From Candidatus Altimarinota bacterium (GTDB lineage: Bacteria; Patescibacteriota; Gracilibacteria; JAUYGZ01): DNA of 64,000 nucleotides. The position numbers were made by a program, and so were the translations under genes. Below, in pieces: positions 2,170 through 62,440 of this stretch. Location: assembly GCA_029233985.1 (NCBI GenBank), contig JARGOK010000002.1, positions 62,001 through 126,000 of the forward strand. The letters are read 5' to 3'. Every line of letters begins with the position of its first letter. The stretch's first letter is position 1. The notes under the pieces are model-generated. The model was not told the origin of the DNA. It made no database searches and saw only the letters and a program-made list of their open reading frames with translations.

Positions 2170-5100
2170 ATGAACAACATACAAAAAATCAGCCTCTCAG
2201 CCATACTTCTAAATATCAGCATACTTTTTGTAGCTGTGAATACTCCATCTTATGCCAGTGAAATCGTCACTACACCAGCAAGCCTTATGGACGATTCAAA
2301 TCTCATCTTTTTATCTCAAGAAGCTCTCAGCACCTCTCAGTCACTAAACATCAGTTCATCTCTTTCTACTGAAGACCAAGAATCCTTTACCACTCAGGAG
2401 TATTACGAATCGCAGCAACTCCTGACGACACTCGATGTATCTACTGGAAAAAGCCTTATTCGTTATAATGGTGAGCTCTTAGACCTCCCCTTGGATTTTA
2501 TCAAGAGTGCTTCATTATCGAGTGAATCTCTTATCGTTTTAGGTATTCAAGAACCGAGAACAGTTGCTGACATATATAAGATTGAAATTTCTAGCAATAT
2601 AGCCACTAGGATCATCGAAGCAAAAGAAGAAATTGGGCACATCTCTATAGAAAAAGAAAGCAACACACTCTATTGGTCATCAAAAACAGAAGAAAGTGAA
2701 AAAATAATGAAGTGTGACCTCAGTAACTGCTCACCAGAGATCTTTTTCTCTCTCCCAAAAAACAGCAGTACTAGTAGTGTCTCATCTGACAAAGACTCTA
2801 TAATAATAGAAACAAATGGATCAAAGCTGACAATATGCCAAGCAACCTGCCAGAATGCAAAAATAATCAACAGGCCATCTCAAATCCTTTCATCTGCACT
2901 ACAGACTCCATATTTTATCTGGTCAGAAAAAGTTGATGGGAAAGCCGAAATATTCCTAATCAACACAAAAAACTCCTCAAAGGATGTGATTCAACTGACT
3001 TCTGCGTCTTCTGGAGACCAGCTTTCACCATCACTTTCAGTCTCCAACGAAAAGCTCTGGCATGCAGTATGGGAAAACTACTCAAGTGAGTCAGGCCTCT
3101 TGACAATAGCCAGTATCTCAAGAGAAACCATCCTTTCAAAAAAAAGCATCCCATTACCTGGTCGTCATCCTAAAATCATTACAGTAAATAAAGAAACCTG
3201 TGACGAACAACTCTCCATCAATCTCTGGGAAAAGAACACAAAGCAACTGCTCACCTTCACAAACACCCCAGAAGAAACGGAAATGATTACCAGGATCATC
3301 GAGCTAGACCAACTGAGTTACGAATCAACACTTCTTTTTGATGGTGAAATAGACAGCTCGCAAACATCATTTTATTGGAGAACATCAAAGGATTTCAACT
3401 GGAAACCCTTACAAATAATAAGTGGATCATCACCACTCAAAGGAATCATTTCATCGGCTCACAAAAAGATCCAATTAAGAATACTGTTCTCAGAAAATAA
3501 ACAATGTTTCACATCACTTTCGCTAAACACTTCAAGCATTGCTCCGAATACTTCAAATCTCGCAGATGCTACCACATTCAGCCCAAGTGAATACGAAGCA
3601 ATTCTTCCACTAAATCTGGGAGATGAAAATACAAGAGAAGAAACTCAGCTTGATGCTGCACTCTATGAGAGCATCAACAATCTTTTGACAACATCGACTC
3701 TTGACAAGAGCCTCAACAAAGGCCCTGATAGTGACAAAGACGGACTATCAGACAGCTTCGAAATATACCTCAATACAGATCCTAAAAGTCCAGATACAGA
3801 CAATGGTGGACTCAATGATGGATCAGAACACCTCATTCACCAGCTCGATCCATTAGACCCTACAGATGACAACGAAATTAGTTTAAGAATAAATAACATA
3901 CAGCCCCGAAGCACTCTTCCTGTACTAGACATCATCACTGGATTTGCTCCACAGTCAGACAAAAATGTCTGGTTTTATCTTTTGGATGACAACAAAAAAA
4001 GCATCACCATAGGAAACACCAAAACAAAACCTGATGGGACTTTTATCTTCAAAGCTCCGCCGATTCCAGAAAACTACAAAGGTGAAGTCCTTCTCATAGC
4101 ATCTCAAGTTTCAAATATTAGATTGGCTACCCTCTTTCCAAAACTCACCCAAAGCCTCTCCATCTATCTCTACAACGAGGAAGATATCCTCGCAAAACGG
4201 AACATCATAGAATTAGCGCTTGATGTAGAATCTCTGAATTTTTCTCAAAATGGAGTTTCTCTCAAAACACTCCAAAAAGATTACAGGGAAGTCTTTTATA
4301 TTGATGAAACGTCTCCTATACAAATTCAAATAAAGGGAAAAGTTTATGGAGAAAATTTGAGCAGTGTAAGTGTCTTTTCAACACTTCTGCCAACACTACA
4401 GGAAAAGAATCATGAAAAATTACAAAATGATCCATCACAAATAGACATTATTTTAGAAATGGATCCTTACCCTCAAGACATTCCGATTGATATCAGCATC
4501 CAAGCAAGCGACAACAACCGCAATATGAGTACAACGCAGACACTGAGTTTTAATACGAGGCCAATAGAAAAATATCCTGATCTGACATCACAGATTTTGA
4601 ATGAAGTGCTATCAGAACAAGAAGTTATTGTTTTGATCGTTTTGTTCATTTTGTCATTTTTGTACTACATACTGTGCAAAAGAACTGGCCGCACGACAAG
4701 CTCTCACATTGCTCTCATTATAATGATTTTGAGTGTTTTAGGGACTCTATATAGCATCAGCAGCCTGAGTCTGTATCTCGCACACAAGAGTGGGTTAATA
4801 TCTGTAGTGGATCAAGAACTCAATATTCAAAAAAGCAGAGAGATTTCAGCAAGCTATCTCACATTGGTAAAAAAAGATGAAAACCTAAAAGTGAAACCTC
4901 ACCTAGCAAAAACATGGAGCAATATTAGTGACCTCACTTGGGAGTTCAAAATGAGAAAGCACATCCGTTACGAAGACCAAACCTTTATAAAAAGCGGAGA
5001 TATTATACGAACACTTCAAGAAAAAATTGCTGAAAATTCATCTCAACAGCAGTATTTATCGAGTATCGATCAAATAATAAAGATCAACGACCAAGTATTT

Positions 5101-6162
5101 CAGATTATTACACACTACCCAGACCCACTCCTTCCTCAAAAGCTCACAAAAGTCTCACTTCTGAGCTCGGAAACACCAGACGACGACCACCTCAATGGCC
5201 TTCTTTATATTCCACTAGAAACCTCAGCTGATCACAAAAGACTCAAGATAAACCCCTGGTTTTTTGACTATCCATTCTCACAAAGCAAAACCACTTACAT
5301 CAATGAAAACTACAGTCTCAATCCTGAAAGCTATACCAGAAAAATCACTTCACAAACATTAGATATCATCGATGAACCAGCTCGAGTGCTATGGCAAACA
5401 CTGAAAGAAAACAAGTATACTCTCAAGCAAAAGGTCAGCACAGAGAGCTACGTACTCCTGACAAACAGAAACAGCTTCTTTCTCAAGTCTTCAGAAACAA
5501 TCAAGCAGCTCCAAAACATTCTCCATACTAGGGATCTCCTAGAATCCTACGAAGGAGAAAGCAGTCTTTCTACACAATTCGTTCCACCAGGTGTTGTAGG
5601 CTACAATAGTGAACTCAAAAGTCAGCCAAACACTAGCTTTGTAAGCAATGAAACAACTCTGACACTAAAACTTCATTTCCCAAAAAAAGAATCTGAACTC
5701 GCCAGAATAATAGAACAAATACTTCAGTCAGCAGGTATCAATATTATTCCAGTTTCCTACACCAGTACTGATTTCAAAGATGAACTCCTCAATAGCCTTT
5801 CAGACCTCATTCTTCTCCCACTAGACTTCGAATTAGCTGATGCTGGTCCTTTCCTCGACACCTTTATAGACTCTAGTTCACCATTCAATACGTATTATAA
5901 AAACGATCAGGTTGATGAACTTATTCTCAAAAGTCGTTTTGAACTTGATCAATACAAACGGCTTCAAATCCTTAAAGAAATAATGACTATCATTGTTCAA
6001 GAAGACCCAGCCGGTATACCTCTGATCAACCGGAAAAAGTTCCAAGCCTTTAGGACCAAAGAACCAATAAGCATCTTTGATCAATGGATCAAATCAACCA
6101 TTGAGAGACAGTATGAAAAAGAGGATCCATTACAGTACTTGAACCCTTACGAGGAGTCTTAA
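2170..6162 (+). CDS. Giant membrane protein ending in a family-5 solute-binding domain
   Basis: 1330 residues. An N-terminal signal peptide is followed by a Ser/Thr-rich region that looks beta-propeller-like (about 60-420). Near 517-550 there is a calcium-binding, thrombospondin-3-type motif (DSDKDGLSD and later DPKSPDTDNGG). Ig-like sequence follows to about 800. Two transmembrane segments lie at about 816-836 and 848-870. The C-terminal part, about 880-1330, has the opening pattern of oligopeptide/nickel-binding proteins (SBP_bac_5): LAKTWSNISDLTWEFKMRK and then a GD-I-TL stretch. Those proteins are normally free lipoproteins feeding an ABC permease; here the domain is fused behind a membrane hairpin and no Opp/Dpp permease is next to it. 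The domain assignment is good, the function unknown. Confidence 0.7.
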   Translation: MNNIQKISLSAILLNISILFVAVNTPSYASEIVTTPASLMDDSNLIFLSQEALSTSQSLNISSSLSTEDQESFTTQEYYESQQLLTTLDVSTGKSLIRYNGELLDLPLDFIKSASLSSESLIVLGIQEPRTVADIYKIEISSNIATRIIEAKEEIGHISIEKESNTLYWSSKTEESEKIMKCDLSNCSPEIFFSLPKNSSTSSVSSDKDSIIIETNGSKLTICQATCQNAKIINRPSQILSSALQTPYFIWSEKVDGKAEIFLINTKNSSKDVIQLTSASSGDQLSPSLSVSNEKLWHAVWENYSSESGLLTIASISRETILSKKSIPLPGRHPKIITVNKETCDEQLSINLWEKNTKQLLTFTNTPEETEMITRIIELDQLSYESTLLFDGEIDSSQTSFYWRTSKDFNWKPLQIISGSSPLKGIISSAHKKIQLRILFSENKQCFTSLSLNTSSIAPNTSNLADATTFSPSEYEAILPLNLGDENTREETQLDAALYESINNLLTTSTLDKSLNKGPDSDKDGLSDSFEIYLNTDPKSPDTDNGGLNDGSEHLIHQLDPLDPTDDNEISLRINNIQPRSTLPVLDIITGFAPQSDKNVWFYLLDDNKKSITIGNTKTKPDGTFIFKAPPIPENYKGEVLLIASQVSNIRLATLFPKLTQSLSIYLYNEEDILAKRNIIELALDVESLNFSQNGVSLKTLQKDYREVFYIDETSPIQIQIKGKVYGENLSSVSVFSTLLPTLQEKNHEKLQNDPSQIDIILEMDPYPQDIPIDISIQASDNNRNMSTTQTLSFNTRPIEKYPDLTSQILNEVLSEQEVIVLIVLFILSFLYYILCKRTGRTTSSHIALIIMILSVLGTLYSISSLSLYLAHKSGLISVVDQELNIQKSREISASYLTLVKKDENLKVKPHLAKTWSNISDLTWEFKMRKHIRYEDQTFIKSGDIIRTLQEKIAENSSQQQYLSSIDQIIKINDQVFQIITHYPDPLLPQKLTKVSLLSSETPDDDHLNGLLYIPLETSADHKRLKINPWFFDYPFSQSKTTYINENYSLNPESYTRKITSQTLDIIDEPARVLWQTLKENKYTLKQKVSTESYVLLTNRNSFFLKSSETIKQLQNILHTRDLLESYEGESSLSTQFVPPGVVGYNSELKSQPNTSFVSNETTLTLKLHFPKKESELARIIEQILQSAGINIIPVSYTSTDFKDELLNSLSDLILLPLDFELADAGPFLDTFIDSSSPFNTYYKNDQVDELILKSRFELDQYKRLQILKEIMTIIVQEDPAGIPLINRKKFQAFRTKEPISIFDQWIKSTIERQYEKEDPLQYLNPYEES

Positions 6163-52169: not shown

Positions 52170-52265
52170 AAGAGTGTTAACTTTTGTTCTAGATCGGTAG
52201 GAGGCCTTAGCTAAATACATGGATCATGAAAACAAAGTGCCGTGTATTTCTTAATTTTTTTTCAC

Positions 52266-52538
52266 ATGGCTAAGAAACTTTTCGTCGGTAACATCTCTTG
52301 GGGGATGGATACCGCAGCTCTACAAGCAGCTTTTGCTTCTTACGGAGAAATCGAAGACTGTATCGTGATCACTGACAAGTTCAGCGGACGATCAAAAGGA
52401 TTCGGATTCGTTACTTTCACAGACGACGCTGCAGCTGATGCTGCTATCGCTGAAATGAATGGTAAGGAAATGGAAGGTCGAGAACTCGTTGTAAACGAAG
52501 CTCGTCCTCGTGAAGAACGTCCTCCACGTCAGTTCTAA
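52266..52538 (+). CDS. RRM-domain RNA-binding protein
   Basis: 90 residues from ATG at 52266 (MAKKLFVGNISWGMDTAAL). One RNA recognition motif fills it: RNP2 LFVGNI near 5 and RNP1 SKGFGFVTF near 45, then ELVVNEARPREERPPRQF. Bacterial single-RRM proteins of this kind (Rbp-like) are often cold-induced RNA chaperones. Monocistronic, with its own promoter and terminator. It is the last ordinary gene before the integron-like array. Confidence 0.92.
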   Translation: MAKKLFVGNISWGMDTAALQAAFASYGEIEDCIVITDKFSGRSKGFGFVTFTDDAAADAAIAEMNGKEMEGRELVVNEARPREERPPRQF

Positions 52539-52560: not shown

Positions 52561-52599
52561 AAAAAGACCTTGTATCAATTGATACAGGGTCTTTTTTTA
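52561..52599 (+). terminator. Rho-independent terminator of the RRM gene
   Basis: AAGACC and TGTATC around 52563-52576 pair with GATACA and GGTCTT around 52581-52592 across an AATT loop, followed by TTTTTTT. Its end touches the stop codon of the convergent recombinase gene. Confidence 0.92.
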
Positions 52600-53418
52600 G
52601 AACGGACTCTGAATATTCAACAGTGCAGACTTCGCAACCTTCGTATACACCTGAGTGGTCCGAATGCTCGAATGCCCAAGCAAACTTTGTACATACCGAA
52701 GATTGGTGCCATTTTCTAACAAGTGCGTTGCAAAACTGTGGCGAAGAGAATGAAAAGTAGCAGGTTTTTTTATCCCAACAGCCTTCAACGCTCTTTCAAA
52801 AACCTTTTGGAGAGATCGAGAACTCAAGTTCCCCCCCCTTTCACTTTCAAAAACCGCAGCATCTCCACCCCTATTCTTACAATACTCAAAAAGAGAATCT
52901 TTCAATCTTTCCGGTAATAGCGTGACCCGATCCTTACAGCCTTTGGCAGCCTTCAGATGAATCGAATTCGTATCAAAACATATATCACCCACCTGGAGTG
53001 CAGTCACCTCAGAAATCCTCAGTCCCGAGCCATATGCCAAAGATATCATCAAGTGATGCTTGAAATTTGTTACGCGTGATAACAGCACCTCTATCTCATG
53101 ATGAGACAGCACAACTGGTAATTTTTTTGCTCGATACGATGAAGGGATATCCACTATCAGTGGCTTTTTTAAAACATATCTCGAAAAGGCCTGAAAAGAT
53201 TGCTTATAAGTATTCAATGTAGAGGAAGCATAATTATATTTCAAATGCCTCTCAACAACGAACGCTCTCAAATTCAACGGATTAAATTCTTGAAAATCAT
53301 AACACTCAAAAAAAGCTTCCAGATTACTTAAGTACATCTTCACCGTCCGAGGACTCTTCTTCCGAAGCAATAATTCTTCACGAAAAACCTTCAAATATTC
53401 TTCTTTCATATCATTCAT
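52597..53418 (-). CDS. Tyrosine recombinase of the array (Xer/IntI-like)
   Basis: 273 residues. N-terminal SAM-like core-binding domain at 1-85 (SPRTVKMYLSNLEAFF), catalytic domain after KLPVVLSHHEIEVLL. Active residues are all present: Arg134 (GSGLRISEV), Lys159 (AAKGCKDR), His223 and Arg226 (FHSLRHSFATHLL), His249 (LLGHSS), Tyr258 (TTQVYT). The C-terminus IQSPF recalls the SPL ending of IntI. It is shorter than typical IntI (about 320-340) because the insertion between KNRGG and the SLQKVFERA helix is missing. Head-to-tail divergence from the cassettes is the classic integron layout. Start at 53418; M at 53409 is possible. Confidence 0.85.
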   Translation of the reverse strand: MNDMKEEYLKVFREELLLRKKSPRTVKMYLSNLEAFFECYDFQEFNPLNLRAFVVERHLKYNYASSTLNTYKQSFQAFSRYVLKKPLIVDIPSSYRAKKLPVVLSHHEIEVLLSRVTNFKHHLMISLAYGSGLRISEVTALQVGDICFDTNSIHLKAAKGCKDRVTLLPERLKDSLFEYCKNRGGDAAVFESERGGNLSSRSLQKVFERALKAVGIKKPATFHSLRHSFATHLLENGTNLRYVQSLLGHSSIRTTQVYTKVAKSALLNIQSPF

Positions 53419-53515
53419 CTAAAAACTACAATTCATTTTCTTTTTACTCCCAGTTCGGATAATAAGCAAAAAAGTGGTGTTGACAGGTAAACAGTTCGTA
53501 TATACTGGAGTTGTC
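53419..53515 (+). other. attI-like recombination site
   Basis: The 91 bases upstream of the recombinase start lead to GTTGTCCGAC with the core G at 53509. GTTGTCC plus the following bases of cassette 1 are complementary to the sequence just before attC1 (GGACAAC at 54864-54870 and beyond), so the junction is fixed by cassette 1 itself. The part to the left shows no attC-like palindrome, as expected for attI. Confidence 0.6.
53479..53505 (+). promoter_or_regulatory. Possible cassette promoter (Pc-like)
   Basis: TTGACA at 53479-53484, 15 bases, TATACT at 53500-53505, pointing into the cassettes from within the attI region. The spacing is short, so activity is uncertain. Cassette 1's gene runs the other way. 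Confidence 0.4.
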
Positions 53516-53722
53516 CGACATTTCTGTTTGGGAATCTCTTAATTTGGATAAAATGGGTACTTTTTCTTAGGAAGAACACAATACACCCCCTCCCCACCCA
53601 AAAAACAATTCCATAAAATAAGTAAAACAGCCACCTCTGAGAGTGGTTACTATTCACCGCATGCTTAAAAATACACCTCAGTGGCTTACGAGGAAAGAAA
53701 ATATTCAAAATAAAAACAAAGA

Positions 53723-54682
53723 TCAAAGATCAATCTGACCCATCACCGCCGACCGCAAACGCGCCCCAGGAGCGTCAAGCACTAGACTGCGCACAGACAG
53801 GTTCACGCTCCGAGCGTTCGGATTCCAATCAACCACGCCAACAAGGCCATTTTCCTCATCTATTTCCTGAAGGAGTGTATATTGCCATTCGTACTTCGCA
53901 TCTCGCCTCGTGCTTTCACCTTCATATTCACATCCTAGTGGTTTGGCTTGAACTAACGAGTCCATCATGAGAACAGCAGCCGATCCAAAATTGAGTCTTT
54001 GCACACCTGTATCTTGGTAGCGCCTATCAAACTCTCCAATCCGTCCTCTAAAGTCTTGTAGAGCACTATCCCACTCAGGAATATCAACTCGTTGTGCCCC
54101 ATCGACGATAGCCCAACGATAGCCGGGGATCTTTTTTCCTTCCTGAGCTAAGGCATTGAGTGAATTTCGAGTGAAATCTGATAAATATGGCGTTTGCTGC
54201 CCTTCCATGGTACGGCAAGCTTCACAATTTAAAGCCTGCACATACCGCTGAGCATTGGTAATTGGATAGATCACAAGACGCGGTTCTTTAAATTGTAGTA
54301 CTTCCTGAGCTTGGCGTGGAGTCAACTGAGATCGGATTGACTCAAGTACTTGCTCAGGTTCCGGCAGAGCAACGTCTCCTTGATCCGGATTGACCTCAAA
54401 AAGAGCCATTGTAGTTAACGCATGGTGTATTTGATTAAGCTCATTGTCAACTCGCTCTAGCAATAATGCCATAACTTGAAGAATTGCACGCCTCTCTTCG
54501 GGAATATTGTCTACTTGAGCTAGGGTAGCTGCCCGAACGTTCGAAGCTACTGAAATAAGAGCTGATGCCAGTTGAGGCTCTTCACCGCCATTTCTCACAA
54601 CTACTCGCAAAAGAGCTACTCCTTCACTAGGAGCTCCGCTTGCTCTTACCGCTCGTTCGAGTTTTCTTACACCCTCATCCAT
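53723..54682 (-). CDS. Cassette 1: hypothetical protein, reversed orientation
   Basis: 319 residues, start MDEGVRKLERAVRASGAPS. Helical N-terminal half, then a mixed half with YPITNAQRYVQALNCEACRTMEGQ, YRWAIVDGAQRVDIPEWD and a C-terminal KYEWQYTLLQEIDEENGLVGVVDW. No family recognised. It is transcribed toward the recombinase, against the usual cassette direction, so it cannot use a promoter in attI. Only the unused flanks and the long inverted arms share the cassette with it. Confidence 0.6.
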   Translation of the reverse strand: MDEGVRKLERAVRASGAPSEGVALLRVVVRNGGEEPQLASALISVASNVRAATLAQVDNIPEERRAILQVMALLLERVDNELNQIHHALTTMALFEVNPDQGDVALPEPEQVLESIRSQLTPRQAQEVLQFKEPRLVIYPITNAQRYVQALNCEACRTMEGQQTPYLSDFTRNSLNALAQEGKKIPGYRWAIVDGAQRVDIPEWDSALQDFRGRIGEFDRRYQDTGVQRLNFGSAAVLMMDSLVQAKPLGCEYEGESTRRDAKYEWQYTLLQEIDEENGLVGVVDWNPNARSVNLSVRSLVLDAPGARLRSAVMGQIDL

Positions 54683-54863
54683 GTTTTATGCTTAAACTAT
54701 CATTACATTATACCATACTTTTGACTGGATTTGTTAAGAATTTTTTAAAAATATAGGAGAATTGTTTTCGCCCCCTCCTTTCTCTCTCTACAGAGAGAGA
54801 CCAGAAAATTTAAGGTAAAAGTGCCCATTTTAACAATATATACGATTCCCAAACAGAGACAAC

Positions 54864-54948
54864 GGACAACAGCCTGCTATCCTACATATCGACGCGGTTC
54901 AACAATTATACCGCACCGATTCGTCGGATCAGCATGCAAACGTTGTAT
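54864..54948 (+). repeat. attC1
   Basis: Left arm GGACAAC then AGCCTGCTATCC; right arm GGATCAGCATGC, AAAC and GTTGTAT at 54942-54948. Extra unpaired bases occur on the right arm, and a second stem TATCGACGCGGT / ACCGCACCGATT forms the terminal part around 54888-54921. These are the elements of an attC fold. Confidence 0.85.
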
Positions 54949-55033
54949 GACATCCATTCTTCTTCCTCTGTTCCAGAGGATTTTCACTCTGCTTTAGGGG
55001 AAATAAATAAGTAATTCAGGACAAGATTTTTCT
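54942..55033 (+). repeat. Left arm of cassette 2's long terminal inverted repeat
   Basis: Three blocks pair with the right arm at 56565-56633: GTTGTATGA plus CCATTCTTCT near 54942-54963, a 16-base block 54981-54996 with 56588-56603, and a 25-base perfect block 55008-55032 with 56565-56589. The arms enclose the reverse transcriptase gene. Confidence 0.85.
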
Positions 55034-55103
55034 CTAAGAAAGACTAATAAGAAAACACCTGAAGGTGTAGAATGGAACAAGGGAAATAAGATAATACAAT
55101 AAA

Positions 55104-56525
55104 ATGATAGAGTTTGGTGAGTTCAAAAAATACTTTAACAATAATTTCTGGAAAAGATTTCACCAGAAAGTGGTATTTTTTCCTATCCTGTTATCTTCTG
55201 AAAAAGAAGAAATCATAGAAACTCTATATAATGATCTTTTAAACAAGAAATACTACCCATCTATTCCAAGAGCATACATATTTGAGAATAAGGGCAAAGG
55301 AGTAACCAGAAAAGTGCCGGTCTTTGAAATTAAGGATTACTGCCTATATTACTATTGTGTTAAGAGACTAGAAAAGAAAATTGCATACAATAGAGTCGAT
55401 AATACATTTGGGGGATGGTCACTTGGTGGTGTTTTCAGAAAAAGCGAAGATGAGGAGATGAAATTTAGAACTGAAACGCATAATTCCTTTGAGGACGAGC
55501 TTGCTAATTATCATGGTGTCTCCTTAGCTGAATACTCATTTAACCCAACTGCATGGAGCAAGGCTTATGGGGATTTTAGCTCCAAATTGTATGCGAGCAC
55601 ACAGGAGGCGAGCTATAAATATGCAGTTGAGTTAGACATATCTAATTTCTACGATTGTATTCGTCTCGATTTGCTGGAAATTTGGATAAGGGAAGTTGCC
55701 AGTAAAGATAACGCTGAAGATATAAGTGTTCTATTTCATTTTTTGAATTATTGGAACAGGGAATCAAATAAGTATGACAAACAAACCGTCGGAGTCCCAC
55801 AAGATGCCTTTGCTGACTGTTCCAGAATTCTAGCTAATTTTTATCTTCAAAGACACGATCAGTATACATATGAATTATGCGAAATTAACCAGTGTAGATA
55901 TTTAAGATATGCTGATGATCAATTCATTTTTGGAGAGAGTAAAGAGAAACTTGAATACTTAATTTACTTAATTTCGGTCAACCTGTCTAAATTCGGACTT
56001 AATCTTAATCAAAAGAAAGTAAAATATTGGGAAATAGATGAACTGACAGAGCATCGTTCATTTAAGCTTTTCGATTTGGCAAAAGATAAAGAAGATAGAA
56101 AGAACAAAGAAAATGTCGAGAAATTTCTAGATAGTTATTTCTATATTAGAGACAGTGGATTGGAAGATAGTCTCAAAAAAAGAGGAATCTCCTTATTACG
56201 AAAAGCGCTTTTATGCGATTTGAGTATTGTATCATTAGATAGAAGGATAAAGACACTTGGATATGCTCTTGAAGAGGATTTTCTCAGAAAGGCAGAAAAG
56301 AATTATCTAAAAAGAATATATGAAAACCTAGATACTGATGAAAAGAAGCAAGAATTCATTAATCAACTTAAAACACTAGCAAATGAGGCATTTTATAACT
56401 CAATTCATTTCAGAATAAAAAGTTTCTTTGAAGACTTAAAAATTGACACTAAAGAAATCGATGAAAGAATAGATTTCCTCAATAATAGAGAACCTAAATA
56501 TGAGTCAGGGGTAGAATTTATTTAA
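55104..56525 (+). CDS. Cassette 2: reverse transcriptase
   Basis: 473 residues. RT motifs: ELDISNFYDCI with the first catalytic Asp near 178, GVPQDAFADCSRILANFYL (motif 4), YADD at 269-272 in RYLRYADDQFIFG, and LNLNQKKVKYW (motif 6). The C-terminal 170 residues are helical, without the group II intron maturase (X) domain or HNH nuclease. The closest style is the defence-related RTs (DRT/UG and Abi groups). No msr-msd hairpin of a retron and no template-repeat pair were seen. Its promoter is not clear; a TAATACAAT box lies just before the ATG. Confidence 0.85.
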   Translation: MIEFGEFKKYFNNNFWKRFHQKVVFFPILLSSEKEEIIETLYNDLLNKKYYPSIPRAYIFENKGKGVTRKVPVFEIKDYCLYYYCVKRLEKKIAYNRVDNTFGGWSLGGVFRKSEDEEMKFRTETHNSFEDELANYHGVSLAEYSFNPTAWSKAYGDFSSKLYASTQEASYKYAVELDISNFYDCIRLDLLEIWIREVASKDNAEDISVLFHFLNYWNRESNKYDKQTVGVPQDAFADCSRILANFYLQRHDQYTYELCEINQCRYLRYADDQFIFGESKEKLEYLIYLISVNLSKFGLNLNQKKVKYWEIDELTEHRSFKLFDLAKDKEDRKNKENVEKFLDSYFYIRDSGLEDSLKKRGISLLRKALLCDLSIVSLDRRIKTLGYALEEDFLRKAEKNYLKRIYENLDTDEKKQEFINQLKTLANEAFYNSIHFRIKSFFEDLKIDTKEIDERIDFLNNREPKYESGVEFI

Positions 56526-56564
56526 AGGAGCTCTAAAACTCGCTCACCACAACCAATAAAGAAA

Positions 56565-56633
56565 GAAAAATCTTGTCCTGAATTACTTAAAGCAGAGTGA
56601 AAAGAAGAGGGAGAAGAATGGACATCATACAAC
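56565..56633 (+). repeat. Right arm of cassette 2's long terminal inverted repeat
   Basis: Reverse complement of blocks in 54942-55033; it runs directly into the left core box ATACAAC of attC2. Read as a circle, the two arms and attC2 would form one hairpin with a stem of about 70-90 paired bases. Confidence 0.85.
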
Positions 56634-56762
56634 AGCAGTATGTGCGGTTCACTGCTAATCACCCACTCCGAAAACCACGTTCACCCATATCGTTCGGTGG
56701 TCCTCCCGCTTTGCGGAAAAATTATACCACCTCCGACATCGCACATACTGCAAACGTTGTAG
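56627..56762 (+). repeat. attC2 (long terminal loop)
   Basis: Left ATACAAC then AGCAGTATGTGCGG; right CGCACATACTGC, AAAC and GTTGTAG at 56756-56762. The central loop is about 50 bases longer than in the other sites and contains its own pairing (CCGCTTTGCGG, and ACCAC with GTGGT). Confidence 0.85.
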
Positions 56763-56802
56763 GACATAAATGTGTTTTCCAAAAAAGTGATTTCTTCCTT
56801 AT

Positions 56803-57447
56803 TTATAGAGGGGAGAAACATTCCAATAAGTCTCGTGGATGATCAAGGATTCTATCTGCCATCGAGAAATCATGGTTTAAAGTGTACTTGTTGGGAATCA
56901 CAAAACAAATCAAACCTGCAGCTTTGGCAGCTTGAACACCTCTTTGCGTATCCTCAATTACCAAACACTGTTCCCTATCATGTGGAACTCGATCATAAGC
57001 CTGCAAATAACAAGCTGGATCAGGTTTGTCCTCATCAAAGTCCTCTCTGGCAATTATGAAATCAAAATATTTTCTCAAATTCTTAGCATCTACAATATGA
57101 TCATTGTTACTACGAAGCGAACTTGTAACAACTGACATTGGTACTCGTTGATGAAGTGAATCCAAAACCTCACGAATTCCATCCATTATGACAACTTCTC
57201 TTGACAATGAAGTTTGGTAGAGAAGATTTCGTTCTTCCCTCAATTGTTGCACTCGTTTCCGATCGACACCTTGATCAAGTAGCAAGTCGAAAGAACTCTT
57301 CCCTGTGGCAAGATGAACACCCGTCCACCAATCAATTGTGAGTTCCAAACCTTCTTTGGATAAAACTTGCTGAGTTGCTTTAAAAAAAGCTGGTTCAGTA
57401 TCAACGAGAGTTCCATCGCAGTCCCAAAATATTTGCTTATACGGCAT
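56803..57447 (-). CDS. Cassette 3: HAD-superfamily phosphatase
   Basis: 214 residues. Motif I DCDGTLVDTE near 9-18, motif II VTSSLRSN near 105, motif III Lys in EDKPDPACYLQA near 145, motif IV VIEDTQRGVQAAKAAG near 170. It belongs to the beta-phosphoglucomutase/phosphoglycolate-phosphatase-like subgroup; the substrate is unknown. Orientation is opposite to the array. The terminal inverted arms overlap neither catalytic part. Confidence 0.88.
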   Translation of the reverse strand: MPYKQIFWDCDGTLVDTEPAFFKATQQVLSKEGLELTIDWWTGVHLATGKSSFDLLLDQGVDRKRVQQLREERNLLYQTSLSREVVIMDGIREVLDSLHQRVPMSVVTSSLRSNNDHIVDAKNLRKYFDFIIAREDFDEDKPDPACYLQAYDRVPHDREQCLVIEDTQRGVQAAKAAGLICFVIPNKYTLNHDFSMADRILDHPRDLLECFSPL

Positions 57448-57585
57448 ACGTTTCGATTTATTGGAAGCTAGTATATCATCATTTTTGCCCTATAAATAGG
57501 GCGATTTGGCTCGCAAAATTCACCCCCATCCCCTCTTTTGCTCGCCAGAAGAAATCACAATTTTAAGGGAAAACACATTTTCATC

Positions 57586-57669
57586 CTACAACAGCGGTCC
57601 ATATGACATATCGCGATGGTGGGAACATTTTACCATCACGATTCATCACATAGACCGCAAACGATATAC
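57586..57669 (+). repeat. attC3
   Basis: Left CTACAAC then AGCGGTCCATATG; right CATAGACCGC, AAAC and GATATAC at 57663-57669. The two boxes do not match each other, but the left box fits the start of cassette 3 (GTTGTAG) and the right box belongs to cassette 4, as the integron rule demands. Confidence 0.8.
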
Positions 57670-57692
57670 GAAATATTTCTCAGCCCAATTCT

Positions 57693-58610
57693 TTAGGAAG
57701 AACATTGTTTAACATGTTCTAGGAAAGCCCTTAACAGGTAAAAAACACTATCATTTCGCGGCTTATTACCTTGAGTTTCAATATCCCAACCATTCCAACC
57801 TTCAACACCATTAGCAATCGCCTCTTCTCCTTTAGCTAGTAGTTCTCCGATAGTAATGGTTACCATACCTCTAACCTCTTCGGTTTGTTCAGCATACTCT
57901 ACAAGCCGCTCAAGATCAGCAGTACCTAACATGCCTAACTCGCGTATTTCAAGAAGGAATCCAAGTAGTTTATTACCATCTGGAGTTAATTGAACTCCTT
58001 CATCTCTTAATTTTTCTTCAATTTGAGCATTCATATTACCCAAACCAACTGTCGTCAGTTGAGTCACCTTAGGGTCTAACGGAAGAACATCGCCTAGAGT
58101 AATTAATCCTTCTGCTTCATCACCAGCTTCCTCAGAAATCTCTCTTTTCAGCTCTCTCCCCATGATCTGCTCCATGCCGGAACGCAAATCATAAGTCGGT
58201 ACAAACAATTTGCCTGTATCAAGAACATGTGCTCCTTGCATAAGAAAGTATAGATATTGAGGGACCTTGCCCCCTACAATAAACCTTTCATCTACTAGAG
58301 AAGGATCTTGAGCAAATTGCTCTTCAACACGTTGTTCTTCCTGAGAATTAAGACCACCTCCAATAAACTCTAATACCCTACGTTGAGCTTGTATTCCCAT
58401 TCCCACCGGCATTTCTTCAACACGATCAAGAAACTCCCTCCAATTATGAGGAACTATAACTGCCGCAACTGACTGACGAAAAGAACGTCTCTCATCAGGA
58501 ATATCTGAATGCTCACCGGGTGCCTGAACAATACCTTTTTCTTGAAAAATACGGTTGATTCCAGTTTCAACCTCCAGTGCTTTATCGGCTAATGAGTTTA
58601 TTGAAGACAT
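57693..58610 (-). CDS. Cassette 4: hypothetical protein, reversed orientation
   Basis: 305 residues from ATG at 58610 (MSSINSLADKALEVETGINRIF). Acidic, mostly helical; no motif or signal peptide. The early PDERRSFRQSVAAVIVP recalls the PEERRAILQVMALL stretch of the cassette 1 protein, and both have similar length and direction, so remote relatedness is possible but unproven. The inverted arm TTAACATGTT recurs near both gene ends. Confidence 0.6.
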   Translation of the reverse strand: MSSINSLADKALEVETGINRIFQEKGIVQAPGEHSDIPDERRSFRQSVAAVIVPHNWREFLDRVEEMPVGMGIQAQRRVLEFIGGGLNSQEEQRVEEQFAQDPSLVDERFIVGGKVPQYLYFLMQGAHVLDTGKLFVPTYDLRSGMEQIMGRELKREISEEAGDEAEGLITLGDVLPLDPKVTQLTTVGLGNMNAQIEEKLRDEGVQLTPDGNKLLGFLLEIRELGMLGTADLERLVEYAEQTEEVRGMVTITIGELLAKGEEAIANGVEGWNGWDIETQGNKPRNDSVFYLLRAFLEHVKQCSS

Positions 58611-58685
58611 AATAGAAAAATTAAGAGACAACATGTTAACATTTGGCTAGAATAAGTCAAATAGAGTAGGGCTGAGAAATTCATC

Positions 58686-58770
58686 GTATATCAGCCTGCT
58701 ATCCTACATATCACCGCGGTTCGAACATTATACCACGGCGATTCGTCGGATCAGCAGGCAAACGATATGT
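58686..58770 (+). repeat. attC4
   Basis: Left GTATATC then AGCCTGCTATCC; right GGATCAGCAGGC, AAAC and GATATGT at 58764-58770. Nearly the same core as attC1. The left box complements cassette 4's first bases GATATAC. Confidence 0.85.
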
Positions 58771-58811
58771 GATATATTGGAATAAACTTATCCACCCCTT
58801 AACTCATCATC

Positions 58812-59201
58812 ATGAAAAAGCTACTTTCTTCTTTTGGATTACTGCTACTTGGTTCTATTGCCACTCTAGGCGCAGTTTATGCGCAAGGCGCTGTAAAAGA
58901 TTTCCCCGATGTAGATTCTTCAGCATACTATTTTGAAGCTCTTCAAGATATAAACTCACGTGGCATAGTGAATGGATATCAAAATGGAAACTTTGGCCCA
59001 AATGATGCTGTAACTAGAGCTCAATTGGTGACTATTTTAAAGAGATTCGATGATAGTCAAGTAAACGCATACCATAGAGGTGGCATTGGAAAACTTCAAA
59101 CGCTCATTTGTGCAAGCATCAACAAAGAAGACCTGGCATCAGAAAGTGAAGGATGGGGAAAGCCTCAAGAAGTCTATGATGAAGTCTGTACCCTCCCCTA
59201 A
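58812..59201 (+). CDS. Cassette 5: small exported SLH-domain protein
   Basis: 129 residues. Signal peptide MKKLLSSFGLLLLGSIATLG with AQG near the cut, then one S-layer-homology domain (VKDFPDVDSSAYYFEALQDI, GIVNGYQNGNFGPNDAVTRAQLVTILKRF) and a short tail with two Cys. It should attach to the cell wall, like the SLH protein at 16320. Smallest cassette (539 bp); the ATG follows the cassette's left end by only 47 bases. Confidence 0.85.
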   Translation: MKKLLSSFGLLLLGSIATLGAVYAQGAVKDFPDVDSSAYYFEALQDINSRGIVNGYQNGNFGPNDAVTRAQLVTILKRFDDSQVNAYHRGGIGKLQTLICASINKEDLASESEGWGKPQEVYDEVCTLP

Positions 59202-59218
59202 ATTTATTCCAATTCATC

Positions 59219-59309
59219 ACATATCAGGCGTATATCCAAAATATCCCGTACTAATCCTGCGGGATGTTTTAGTATTTAGATTCATCGGATCACTCTGCAA
59301 ACGTTGCAT
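59219..59309 (+). repeat. attC5
   Basis: Left ACATATC then AGGCGTATATCC; right GGATCACTCTGC, AAAC and GTTGCAT at 59303-59309. The core stem is less regular than the others, with ATCCCGT / GCGGGAT in the terminal part. The left box complements cassette 5's first bases GATATGT. Confidence 0.75.
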
Positions 59310-59438
59310 GGCATATCTCTTCATTTTTCTTTCTTTCTAAACATAATTGAAACGAGAAATAGAGTATTTTTCTTGTCACATTTTTTATTACTCCAATTAC
59401 ATCGAAAGTGTATATTTAACTTATAGATAATAATTTCA

Positions 59439-60032
59439 ATGAAACTCACACCACTAATACTTAAAGCAATCACTTCAGCCACCAGACTGCATAATGGGGC
59501 CACTCGAAAAGTCGATGATACCCCATTCATTGTGCACCCATTCAGTGTGGCCTGGATAATTTCAGAAGTCACAGATGACGAGGAGATTATCGCAGCTGCT
59601 TTACTTCATGATGTATTAGAAGATGTAAAGGGGTATCGGGAAGAGGATATGCTGAGAGATTTTGGCCCAAGGATTACAGGAATAGTTAAGGATGTAACAG
59701 AAGACAAGGACCCAAACAAAGAGTACAACGAGAAAGCTACCTGGAAAAAACGCAAGATGGGGTATATAGACCATCTAAGAACAGCTTCACCAGAGGCTAT
59801 GATACTTTCTTGCTCAGACAAAATTAGTAATCTTACTAGTTTTCTCAGAGATTATAGAGAATTAGGAGAAGAGATATGGGAATATTTTAATGCCAGCAGA
59901 GAAGAAAAATTTTGGTATGAATCTTCTTTATTGGCAATATTCAGAGAAGTAGAAGATCAAAGAATGGCGCCTCTACTGGGTGAGTATGAAAGACTTGTAA
60001 AAGAAGTTCATATAGATAGCTCATTGAAATAA
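59439..60032 (+). CDS. Cassette 6: HD-domain hydrolase, RelA/SpoT-HD-like
   Basis: 197 residues. HD phosphohydrolase of the SpoT/MESH1 type: ATRLHNGATRKVDDTPFIVHPFSVAWI (metal His), AAALLHDVLEDV with the HD pair near 62, then CSDKISNLTSF with the last Asp. No synthetase, TGS or ACT domain, so it would be a stand-alone (p)ppGpp hydrolase or a related nucleotide phosphohydrolase. Plus strand, in array direction. Confidence 0.85.
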   Translation: MKLTPLILKAITSATRLHNGATRKVDDTPFIVHPFSVAWIISEVTDDEEIIAAALLHDVLEDVKGYREEDMLRDFGPRITGIVKDVTEDKDPNKEYNEKATWKKRKMGYIDHLRTASPEAMILSCSDKISNLTSFLRDYRELGEEIWEYFNASREEKFWYESSLLAIFREVEDQRMAPLLGEYERLVKEVHIDSSLK

Positions 60033-60055
60033 ATTTAATAAAGAAAAAAGATATC

Positions 60056-60140
60056 ATACAACAGCGTGATATCCTACATATCACCACGGTCCAAACATTA
60101 TACCGTGTCGATTCATCGGATCAACACGCAAACGATATAC
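60056..60140 (+). repeat. attC6
   Basis: Left ATACAAC then AGCGTGATATCC; right GGATCAACACGC, AAAC and GATATAC at 60134-60140. Terminal stem CACGGT / ACCGTG. The left box pairs with cassette 6's first bases GTTGCAT with one mismatch. Confidence 0.85.
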
Positions 60141-60208
60141 TCCATTGCACCACTTTTTATTTTACTTTTTAATAGGTCATTTAGAGCTATTTTTCTTAAG
60201 AAAGACCA

Positions 60209-60236
60209 TTGATATTTAATAAATATACAATATAAT
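60209..60236 (+). promoter_or_regulatory. Own promoter of cassette 7
   Basis: TTGATA at 60209-60214, 16 bases, TATAAT at 60231-60236, 23 bases before the ATG. A cassette with its own promoter does not depend on a promoter in attI. Confidence 0.6.
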
Positions 60237-60258
60237 GTACTCTTGATTAGTTCATATT

Positions 60259-61452
60259 ATGAATAGAAAAAAGATTGATGTTCTTGGAGCTGGTATCAAT
60301 GGAATTACATCTGCTATTTCCTTAGAACTTGCTGGGTATGATACTCAAATTCATAGCCAAAATCTTCCATTTGACTTGGATTCCCGAGATAGTCGAATTT
60401 CAAAAATCGCAACAGATTTTGCAGCTGCATCGGTTATTCCTCACACCGTGGAGATTGATAACCTAGCCACAAGAATGGGGGTATCCCAGCAGATATTTCG
60501 TATTCTGAGTCAGCACACTCCTACTGGAGTAGGCTGGCGAAGACATTATGAAGTTTTCGAAAAGAGCAAAAAAAATCCTCCATATGCAAATCTTGTAGAT
60601 AATTTTAGTCGTTTTCCTGAATCTGGAGAGGGTATTTCTGGTGCTCCAAGACGAAATAATGTAGATGAAATTTGGGGATGGACATTTAGAGCTCTATTTG
60701 CTGATATGCCAGTGTATCTCCAATGGTTAAATGCTCTCTATATAAACCTAGGGGGAAAAATTGTCACTCATGAGATTACACCTGAAACTATCTCAGATCT
60801 TAAGGGAAGTGCTATTGTTAATTGTACAGGATATGGGAGTTCAGTCTTATTTCCGGAACTTTATTCTACAGAAAATAGTGATTTCAATATCGTAAAAGGA
60901 TATCTTGTCCATCTCCCAACTGGAAATATCATTGTCCCTAAAAATAACGAAGAATTACTTGTTTCATATAATTACACACCTGATCCTAAAGATTTTGAGC
61001 AAGGTCAAGATGTGTACTTTTATCCTAGAAAATCAGACATTGTATTAGGAGGCACACGTCAAAAGGGAAATTTTGAATCTGATGGAAAATGGAATGGAGA
61101 TAGGACTAAAGGACCTACCATTGAAATCACTGGAGTAGAAATACCAGAAGGTGTAATTACAATAAATCGAGAAATTATCCTTAATCTAACAGGGATTGAC
61201 ATTGAACAATTCGATAAATCTGCATGTTGCGGCTATCGGTTTACCACATCAAAAGTAAGACTCGAAATTGGTGAAAATCTCAGAAGGGATCGAAAAATAA
61301 TTCATAATGTCGGACATGGAGGATCAGGAGTTACACTTTCATGGGGTTGTGCCACACAAGTAGTAGAACTAGTTTGTGAAGCACTCAATGATCAATCAAA
61401 GAACTCAGAAGAAATCTGTAATTCCCTACAAGAAGTAATCAGGCAGAAGTAA
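60259..61452 (+). CDS. Cassette 7: DAO-family FAD-dependent oxidoreductase
   Basis: 397 residues. FAD-binding dinucleotide fold DVLGAGINGITSAISLELAG at the N-terminus, then NCTGYGSSVLF near 190, and near the C-terminus CGYRFTTSKVRLE and NVGHGGSGVTLSWGCA, which is the pattern of D-amino-acid oxidase and related enzymes. Probably soluble. Substrate unknown (D-amino acid or similar amine). Longest enzyme in the array. Confidence 0.88.
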   Translation: MNRKKIDVLGAGINGITSAISLELAGYDTQIHSQNLPFDLDSRDSRISKIATDFAAASVIPHTVEIDNLATRMGVSQQIFRILSQHTPTGVGWRRHYEVFEKSKKNPPYANLVDNFSRFPESGEGISGAPRRNNVDEIWGWTFRALFADMPVYLQWLNALYINLGGKIVTHEITPETISDLKGSAIVNCTGYGSSVLFPELYSTENSDFNIVKGYLVHLPTGNIIVPKNNEELLVSYNYTPDPKDFEQGQDVYFYPRKSDIVLGGTRQKGNFESDGKWNGDRTKGPTIEITGVEIPEGVITINREIILNLTGIDIEQFDKSACCGYRFTTSKVRLEIGENLRRDRKIIHNVGHGGSGVTLSWGCATQVVELVCEALNDQSKNSEEICNSLQEVIRQK

Positions 61453-61511
61453 AAAGAAAAATAGCTCTAAATGACTTTGAGAGGTGATGAAATAAAAAGT
61501 GGTGCAACAGG

Positions 61512-61594
61512 GTATATCAGGCAGCTACCCAACATATCCGGTCGGTGAAAAATCATACTAACCAAATTCGTCGGATATACCGCAAACAATATAT
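61512..61594 (+). repeat. attC7
   Basis: Left GTATATC then AGGCAGCTACCC; right CGTCGGATATACCGC, AAAC and AATATAT at 61588-61594. The core pairing is weaker than in attC1-6. The left box complements the first bases of cassette 7 (GATATAC), with a second exact block near 61497-61506 paired to 60146-60155. Confidence 0.75.
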
Positions 61595-61746
61595 GACATA
61601 TTTTTCAATAATTTTTCCTCAAGCAGGAAATTTTGTTGAAGAATTTAAAAAAAAGAATGAAATTTCTATTTTTTTCAATATAGTGAGGGGGATAAAAAAG
61701 TGTTTCTCCACTATCGCTCCGAAATAAATAACCTTAAGGATAATTT

Positions 61747-62340
61747 ATGATTAATAAACGAACTAAATTTATTGTTGATAAAGCTTCTTGGAAAAAAGTT
61801 TTACTACTATTGATTCCAACTTTAGGCACATATTTTACAATGTTGTTTTACTCCATTCCAAAAGTTATGGAATATACAAATGGTATGAAAATTTTAGACC
61901 TAATACCAATGGGATATAATTCAGAATATGCACAAAAACTTTTTGAAACTTTGGGGAAAACTGGTCGTAATATTTATCTCTGGGAACAAATCCCCCTGGA
62001 CATGATTTATCCTATTCTATTTGCCATTACTTTTTCATTATTTTTAGCTCTTGTTCTTAAAAAAGCATTTTCTCAAGAAAAGAATCTACAGAAACTTTGT
62101 ATACTTCCTGCTATTGCTGGATTATTTGATTACTTAGAAAATATTGGAATTATTATTATGATTCAGATTTTTCCTACTTTTAACAATGGAATAGCAAATA
62201 TTACGAATATTTTTTCAGTATCAAAAAGCCTAACGACAACAATATCATTCACACTTATTATTATAGGTCTAATTACTTTATTTTTGAAAAAGAAAGGAGT
62301 TTTTAAAAATGAAATTCTTCAGCAAAATAATAAGGAATGA
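61747..62340 (+). CDS. Cassette 8: polytopic membrane protein
   Basis: 197 residues with about four membrane helices (near 18-38, 85-105, 118-140, 160-185) and charged loops. Family not recognised. Its last codons (KNEILQQNNKE) lie inside the right inverted arm of the cassette, which pairs with 61591-61650. TGA stop. Confidence 0.65.
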   Translation: MINKRTKFIVDKASWKKVLLLLIPTLGTYFTMLFYSIPKVMEYTNGMKILDLIPMGYNSEYAQKLFETLGKTGRNIYLWEQIPLDMIYPILFAITFSLFLALVLKKAFSQEKNLQKLCILPAIAGLFDYLENIGIIIMIQIFPTFNNGIANITNIFSVSKSLTTTISFTLIIIGLITLFLKKKGVFKNEILQQNNKE

Positions 62341-62351
62341 AAAAAGTATTG

Positions 62352-62440
62352 AAAAATACGCTTCGGGGTCGTTGCACTTCACTCTCCAATATTTTGTTCC
62401 ATTTCATTTCACAATGCATCGCATATACTAAACAATATAT
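62352..62440 (+). repeat. attC8, degenerate; right end of the array
   Basis: The right half is clear: TCGCATATACTAAAC then AATATAT at 62434-62440, like attC7. The left arm before it (GAAAAATACGC at about 62351-62361) fits cassette 8's start only in part, and the inner left arm is not recognisable. No complement of the sequence after 62440 was found further on, so the array seems to end here. Confidence 0.5.

What the first reader, a model, noticed from the sequence alone, without database searches (positions are those of the whole stretch)
54943..56756. Reverse transcriptase carried as an integron cassette
The RT has YADD and the other palm motifs but no intron, retron or diversity-generating partner in its cassette. 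Integron cassettes are increasingly seen to carry defence genes; an RT of the DRT/UG or Abi style would fit. Its cassette also has the longest inverted arms, which could double as a structured RNA; ACACC / GGTGT lies between the arm and the gene.
Basis: partly seen in the sequence, partly recalled or inferred. Interest (0 to 1): 0.7.

Follow-up and report, generated by a model that had tools for sequence, protein, structure and literature searches.

The report
Defence-type reverse transcriptase in an integron cassette
A bacterium with a small genome carries a probable anti-phage reverse transcriptase as one exchangeable gene cassette in an unusual integron, in which cassettes are bracketed by their own long inverted repeats and the integrase lacks a domain thought essential.

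Summary
A 473-aa reverse transcriptase (55104-56525) is the only sizeable gene of a cassette bounded by attC-like sites (54943-56756), second of eight cassettes beside a tyrosine recombinase. It is a UG13b-type RT (PADLOC 421.7 bits; next group 98), not a group II intron or retron RT. UG13b is a described profile of the defence-associated (DRT) collection. Close relatives (78-92% identical to each other) sit in type I R-M operons, beside an HpaII-type endonuclease plus Vsr, and in a second inverted-repeat cassette, so the RT is a portable defence-style module. The idea that the arms form an RT-specific RNA is not supported: all eight cassettes have cassette-specific terminal inverted repeats (rank 1 of 40,320 pairings; 27-92 nt in seven), absent from class 1 integrons (7-12 nt) but present in several arrays of the same taxonomic class. 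No DNA flanking the RT is shared among close relatives. Best explanation: a stand-alone, ncRNA-independent DRT carried as cargo of an integron-like system whose integrase lacks the IntI-specific insertion and whose cassettes carry extended palindromic attC arms. Defence activity and recombination are inferred, not shown.

The parts
55104..56525 (+). UG13b-type reverse transcriptase, 473 aa; RT domain about 1-330, C-terminal all-helical domain about 335-461
54943..56756 (+). RT cassette, from the presumed cut point G|TT at 54942/54943 to the G of the next core site
54862..54949 (+). attC-like site upstream of the RT cassette (junction of cassettes 0 and 1)
   Evidence: alignment A2
54942..55033 (+). 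left terminal inverted-repeat arm of the RT cassette, including the core site GTTGTATG
56564..56633 (+). right terminal inverted-repeat arm of the RT cassette, ending in the inverse core CATACAAC
56626..56763 (+). attC-like site belonging to the RT cassette (long variable loop)
55055..55068 (+). small hairpin ACACC-TGAA-GGTGT between left arm and gene; not significant
52597..53418 (-). XerA/integron-type tyrosine recombinase, 273 aa, lacking the 42-residue insertion found in IntI1
53480..53510 (+). presumed attI region next to the integrase gene; cassette 0 begins here with GTTGTCCG
   Evidence: inferred from position
53510..54942 (.). cassette 0 (319-aa protein of unknown function on - strand), with terminal inverted repeats
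56756..57663 (.). cassette 2 (HAD hydrolase on - strand), with terminal inverted repeats
57663..58764 (.). cassette 3 (313-aa protein of unknown function on - strand), with terminal inverted repeats
58764..59303 (.). cassette 4 (SLH-domain protein), with terminal inverted repeats
59303..60134 (.). cassette 5 (HD-domain protein), weakest terminal inverted repeats of the array
60134..61587 (.). cassette 6 (FAD-dependent oxidoreductase), with 64-nt terminal inverted repeats
61587..62434 (.). cassette 7 (197-aa membrane-like protein), with terminal inverted repeats; last in the array

Best explanation
The RT is a stand-alone defence-associated reverse transcriptase of group UG13b, carried as cargo by an integron-like cassette system. 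Shown: it is a UG13b-type RT with an intact catalytic triad, it is the only sizeable gene in its cassette, and relatives occur beside restriction-modification genes and in at least one other inverted-repeat cassette. Inferred: on phage infection it makes DNA without an adjacent RNA template, as Abi-type (Class 1) UG RTs do, and this arrests infection. Also inferred: the cassette moves by single-strand recombination at attC-like hairpins. Its own terminal inverted repeats lengthen the attC hairpin in the excised circle (predicted -84.5 versus -30.8 kcal/mol for the junction in the array). In the array, pairing of the two arms would bring the flanking attC sites side by side for excision. The arms serve the cassette, not the RT.
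For: PADLOC UG13b 421.7 bits over residues 3-460, next group 98 bits; all seven relatives scanned also score best with UG13b. Relatives sit in type I R-M operons (L003, L005, L007), after HpaII endonuclease and Vsr (L008), or upstream of a ResIII protein (L051). L003-L006 and L008 are 78-92% identical to each other yet lie in different contexts and in records labelled with different phyla. L004 is a second RT between 42-nt arms at 98%. AbiK, Abi-P2, DRT4 and DRT6 align over the C-terminal helices to residue 450-471 in at least one of the two models, whereas ncRNA-dependent DRT2 and DRT9 align only over the RT domain. In L004, L005 and L007 genes abut the RT on both sides, leaving no room for an adjacent ncRNA, and close relatives share no flanking DNA. 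Arms are cassette-specific: rank 1 of 40,320 pairings. Tiled arms also occur in L034, L040, L071, L072, L076 and L048 (3-6 per chain; shuffles at most 1). Hairpin energies.
Against: No phage or defence assay exists for this protein, and I found no open-access experimental paper on UG13. In most relatives the RT is next to R-M genes; this genome has no N6_Mtase hit, so no type I R-M partner, and the RT might be inactive alone. The structure models are of medium quality (mean pLDDT 74-75), so the C-terminal likeness to Class 1 enzymes is suggestive only. An ncRNA encoded elsewhere is not excluded. The pairing-assisted excision step has no experimental support.
Confidence: 0.66

Rival explanations
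1. The RT is an auxiliary part of restriction-modification systems (relatives lie inside type I and near type II and III loci) and was captured alone, so in this cassette it is a stranded, inactive or differently used fragment.
For: Relatives in R-M operons; no N6_Mtase in this genome.
Against: Partners differ between relatives 78-92% identical (type I, HpaII/Vsr, none in L004), so no fixed R-M partner is evident. L004 is also a cassette without R-M genes. The window ORF is intact, with all catalytic residues.
Confidence: 0.17
2. The RT works with a structured RNA from its own cassette (the 54950-55103 leader or the paired arms), like Class 2 DRTs.
For: 54960-55103 folds somewhat better than shuffles (z -1.9, 9 of 200 as good); long arms.
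Against: All eight cassettes have arms regardless of cargo. Relatives have no room for, and no shared, flanking RNA. No Rfam match. C-terminal domain resembles Class 1.
Confidence: 0.08
3. The RT takes part in making cassettes (for example by copying transcripts into cDNA with self-primed hairpin ends, which would create the terminal inverted repeats).
For: An RT lies inside an array of inverted-repeat cassettes; fold-back copying would give cassette-specific arms.
Against: The recombinase is in 74 of 242 genomes of the class but a UG13b RT in only this one, while inverted-repeat arrays occur in genomes without it. Relatives lie in R-M loci.
Confidence: 0.03
4. A mobile retroelement RT (group II intron, retron or DGR) that happens to lie in a cassette.
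For: Weak NCBIfam similarity to group II intron RT (72.6 bits) and retron RT (49.7 bits).
Against: Both far below curated cut-offs (300 and 235); no intron or retron RNA in the Rfam scan; UG13b score of 421.7 bits.
Confidence: 0.02

Closest known systems
UG13b defence-associated reverse transcriptases (PADLOC RT_UG13b, PDLC03750)
   Same: Full-length profile match, same length and motifs, R-M neighbourhood in relatives
   Different: Carried as a single-gene integron-like cassette without any R-M partner; about 50% identical to the nearest full-length relatives
Class 1 Abi/DRT reverse transcriptases (AbiK, Abi-P2, DRT4, DRT6)
   Same: RT domain plus C-terminal helical domain; no adjacent ncRNA evident
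   Different: Belongs to another group by profile; C-terminal domain is only about 125 residues; activity not tested
Integrons (class 1 as tested; chromosomal and archaeal integrons from the literature)
   Same: Tyrosine recombinase divergent from a row of single-gene cassettes, each ending in an imperfect hairpin with core sites; position for an attI
   Different: Integrase lacks the IntI-specific additional domain; core sites GTTGTAT/GATATAY rather than GTTRRRY; cassette-specific arms of 27-92 nt in most cassettes, compared with 7-12 nt in class 1
Inverted-repeat cassettes in a Doudnabacteria record (L004)
   Same: A UG13b RT between 42-nt arms at 98%, next to a second cassette with its own arms
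   Different: Core hairpin unrelated in sequence; no close relative of the window integrase found in that genome (best partial match 35%); nested inside a further 128-nt inverted repeat

Membership tests
UG13b / DRT collection (PADLOC) | Best and near full-length match to the group profile | tested here: met
   421.7 bits over 3-460 of 473, E 9.2e-127; next 98.1 bits
UG13b / DRT collection (PADLOC) | Intact catalytic RT motifs | tested here: met
   D178, D271, D272 invariant among full-length relatives
UG13b / DRT collection (PADLOC) | Genomic association with defence genes | tested here: met
   R-M genes adjacent in L003, L005, L007, L008 and nearby in L051; not in the window itself
UG13b / DRT collection (PADLOC) | Protection against phage dependent on RT activity | not testable with these tools
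   needs an experiment
Class 1 UG RTs (alphaRep, template-independent) | C-terminal alphaRep-like helical domain | tested here: inconclusive
   helices 335-460; AbiK, Abi-P2, DRT4, DRT6 aligned to 456-471 at Z 12.6-15.4, rmsd 3.9-7.1; model pLDDT 74.6
Class 2 UG RTs (ncRNA-templated) | Conserved ncRNA encoded in cis | tested here: inconclusive
   no shared flanking DNA among close relatives, no Rfam match; an RNA elsewhere is not excluded
Group II intron RT | Curated maturase/RT score and intron RNA | tested here: not met
   72.6 bits against cut-off 300; no intron RNA
Retron RT | Curated retron RT score and msr-msd RNA | tested here: not met
   49.7 bits against cut-off 235; no Rfam match
Diversity-generating retroelement | Template/variable repeat pair and target gene | not tested
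   no dedicated search was made
Integron | Array of attC-like hairpins next to a tyrosine recombinase | tested here: met
   aligned sites with consensus hairpin; integrase at 52597-53418
Integron | IntI-specific additional domain | tested here: not met
   42-residue stretch of IntI1 absent in the window integrase and two class relatives; TIGR02249 187.5 bits against cut-off 265
Integron | Core site GTTRRRY / inverse core RYYYAAC | tested here: not met
   window cores GTTGTAT, GATATAC, GTTGCAT and AATATAT do not fit; among class relatives some fit (GTTAAGT in L040, GTTAGGC in L034) and others do not (GTTATAT, GTTATCG)
Integron | Recombinase-dependent excision and integration of cassettes | not testable with these tools
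   needs an experiment

The most novel reading that the evidence does not exclude
The array belongs to a distinct, widespread kind of integron in this class of small-genome bacteria. A Xer-like recombinase without the IntI-specific domain works on attC sites whose stem continues, past a small conserved bubble, into long cassette-specific terminal inverted repeats that assist folding and synapsis. These systems spread stand-alone defence RTs among distant bacteria.
Probability: 0.5. Interest if true: 0.78.

Novelty: new variant of a known kind. Interest (0 to 1): 0.6.

Why it matters
It links an untested group of defence-associated RTs (UG13b) to a cassette system, showing how such a gene could move as a single unit between bacteria with very small genomes. 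It also points to integrons that a search requiring the IntI domain or canonical core sites could miss. Their cassette-specific inverted repeats make two open questions testable: how cassette ends arise, and whether arm pairing helps cassettes to be cut out.

Tried and rejected
Rfam scan for an intron, retron or other RNA: only three distant tRNAs. Phage records: no relative. Plasmids: only partial matches at about 30% identity. First viral-contig scan found nothing; with an alignment one distant relative, L051. RT-specific RNA in the arms: rejected because all cassettes have arms. RT as maker of the inverted repeats: rejected because UG13b is in 1 of 242 class genomes while the repeats occur without it. 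Type I R-M partner elsewhere in the genome: none found. The full UG/Abi classification paper is not held, so UG13's place in Class 1, 2 or 3 could not be read. Several arrays could not be examined because contigs end just beyond the integrase, and several examined regions (L036, L037, L070, L079, L080 and others) showed no inverted-repeat chain above shuffles.

Full report
Observation. The cassette and the gene are real. The ORF at 55104-56525 encodes 473 aa with an RVT_1 domain. The first catalytic aspartate (LDI, D178) and YADD (D271, D272) are invariant among full-length relatives. The cassette lies between two core sites, GTTGTATG at 54942 and GTTGTAGG at 56756, each closing an attC-like hairpin. 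The core, close to GCAAACGWTRTA, recurs at each boundary of the array up to 61587, and a variant (AAACAATATATG) closes it at 62434. No RNA family other than three distant tRNAs was found in the window.

Which reverse transcriptase. PADLOC's RT_UG13b profile matches residues 3-460 with 421.7 bits; the next group, UG19, has 98 bits. NCBIfam scores for group II intron RT (72.6 against a cut-off of 300) and retron RT (49.7 against 235) are far below threshold. UG13b is a profile in a published defence collection; I found no open-access experimental study of it, and the paper that defines the UG groups is not held.

Relatives and their surroundings. One scan of genome contigs gave six relatives at 46-57% identity, one search of the phylum gave a distant one (L002), and viral contigs gave one (L051). 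Seven of these eight, all except L008 which was not scanned, score best with UG13b. Their neighbours, by Pfam and position, are: type I R-M methylase and specificity proteins immediately upstream (L003, L005), methylase, specificity and restriction subunits around it (L007), HpaII endonuclease and Vsr immediately upstream (L008), and a ResIII protein downstream on a phage-like contig (L051). L006 has RhuM and Fic proteins downstream. L004 has a small HTH regulator upstream and a lycopene-cyclase-like membrane protein downstream. L003, L004, L005, L006 and L008 are 78-92% identical to each other yet sit in these different contexts and in records labelled Patescibacteria or Doudnabacteria, Planctomycetota and Ignavibacteriota. 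MAG labels may be wrong, above all for the short L008 contig. This is the pattern of a portable module without a fixed partner. The window genome has no N6_Mtase hit, so a type I R-M partner is absent.

No sign of a required flanking RNA. In L004, L005 and L007 genes abut the RT on both sides, and 1.2-kb flanks of eight loci share no DNA apart from one 44-nt match between L003 and L051. In the window, 54960-55103 folds only somewhat better than shuffles (z -1.9) and the ACACC/GGTGT hairpin does not stand out (z -1.5). An RNA encoded elsewhere remains possible.

Structure. Two AlphaFold2 models (mean pLDDT 73.8 and 74.6) show an RT fold followed by a bundle of helices at 335-460. Published work describes Class 1 UG RTs as RT plus an alpha-helical repeat domain with template-independent synthesis, and Class 2 as ncRNA-templated (PMC13174585; PMC12632851). 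That DRT4 and DRT6 are of the Class 1 kind is from my own knowledge. I therefore favour template-independent synthesis, as an inference from a medium-quality model.

The arms belong to the cassette system. The RT cassette's arms (54942-55033 with 56564-56633) are the longest in the array, but all eight cassettes have their own. Scoring every left end against every right end, the true pairing ranks first of all 40,320 permutations, with own scores 22-72 and all others at most 28; cassette 5 (score 22) is not individually above the cross-pairs. In eight class 1 cassettes from five plasmids, used as control, the match ends after 7-12 nt, which is the core site plus a few bases. Chromosomal integrons of other bacteria were not tested. 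A search for tiled inverted repeats next to homologous integrases in the same taxonomic class found chains of 6 (L034), 6 (L040), 4 (L071), 4 (L072), 3 (L048) and 3 (L076), against at most 1 in shuffles of the same regions; other regions gave no signal or ended at the contig edge. The arms are unique to each cassette, yet directly after the core site there is a recurrent 2-3 nt mismatch (left about GAxAT, right ACATC or TCATC) before pairing resumes, seen in the window and in L040 and by eye in L034 and L008. In the excised circle the RT cassette's attC plus arms is predicted to fold as one hairpin of -84.5 kcal/mol (bottom strand, DNA parameters), against -30.8 for the same attC in the array. 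My inference is that arm pairing stabilises the circle's attC and, in the array, brings the two flanking attC sites together.

The integrase. The recombinase at 52597-53418 scores below cut-off with both TIGR02249 (187.5 against 265) and XerA (198.3 against 220). In an alignment with IntI1 of R388 it lacks 42 residues that IntI1 has before box II, as do two homologues from the class. That additional domain is described as necessary for integron recombination and as a defining feature of IntI (PMC9668308). Homologues (E up to 1e-40) are in 74 of 242 genomes of the class. I found no open-access paper describing integrons in these bacteria, a search of limited reach. I therefore call this integron-like rather than file it as a standard integron. 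That the host is of the candidate phyla radiation is an inference from genomes of about 1 Mb and in-frame TGA codons in some class members.

A second cassette. L004 holds a UG13b RT between 42-nt arms at 98%, next to another cassette with arms of its own at 98%, both nested in a further 128-nt inverted repeat. Its core hairpin differs and no close relative of the window integrase was found in that genome, so it may be another cassette system. In L008 an attC-like site follows the RT, then a further cassette.

Verdict. The RT is a new member of a described but untested defence-RT group; the cassette context and the surrounding system, with its inverted repeats and an integrase without the IntI domain, make it a new variant. 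Defence, DNA synthesis and recombination are inferred and need experiments.

Noticed in passing
53510-62434: All eight cassettes of the array have cassette-specific terminal inverted repeats (the weakest in cassette 5), unlike class 1 integron cassettes.
   Followed up: yes
52597-53418: The integrase lacks the IntI-specific insertion although it sits beside an attC-like array; homologues are in 74 of 242 genomes of the class.
   Followed up: partly
L034, L040, L071, L072, L076, L048: Tiled inverted-repeat cassettes next to homologous integrases in other genomes of the class, with a conserved 2-3 nt bubble after the core site visible in L040 and L034.
   Followed up: partly
L004:283-410 and 5164-5291: The two inverted-repeat cassettes are nested in a further 128-nt inverted repeat at about 97%, as if inserted into the tip of a long chromosomal palindrome.
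   Followed up: partly
L008:3068-3094 and 3963-3989: The right arm of the RT-containing cassette pairs with the left end of a different cassette two positions on, suggesting shuffled or related cassette ends.
   Followed up: no
G435:C37, G292:C46, G439:C4, G299:C10 and others: Many homologous integrases lie within a few hundred bases of a contig end, suggesting that arrays break assemblies and are under-reported.
   Followed up: no
53726-54682 and 57696-58634: Two minus-strand cassette proteins of 319 and 313 aa had no PADLOC match and no significant Pfam match; genes in the array point both ways, so several cassettes probably carry their own promoters.
   Followed up: no
52242-52538: A small RNA-recognition-motif-like protein (by eye) is encoded just past the 3' end of the integrase gene.
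   Followed up: no
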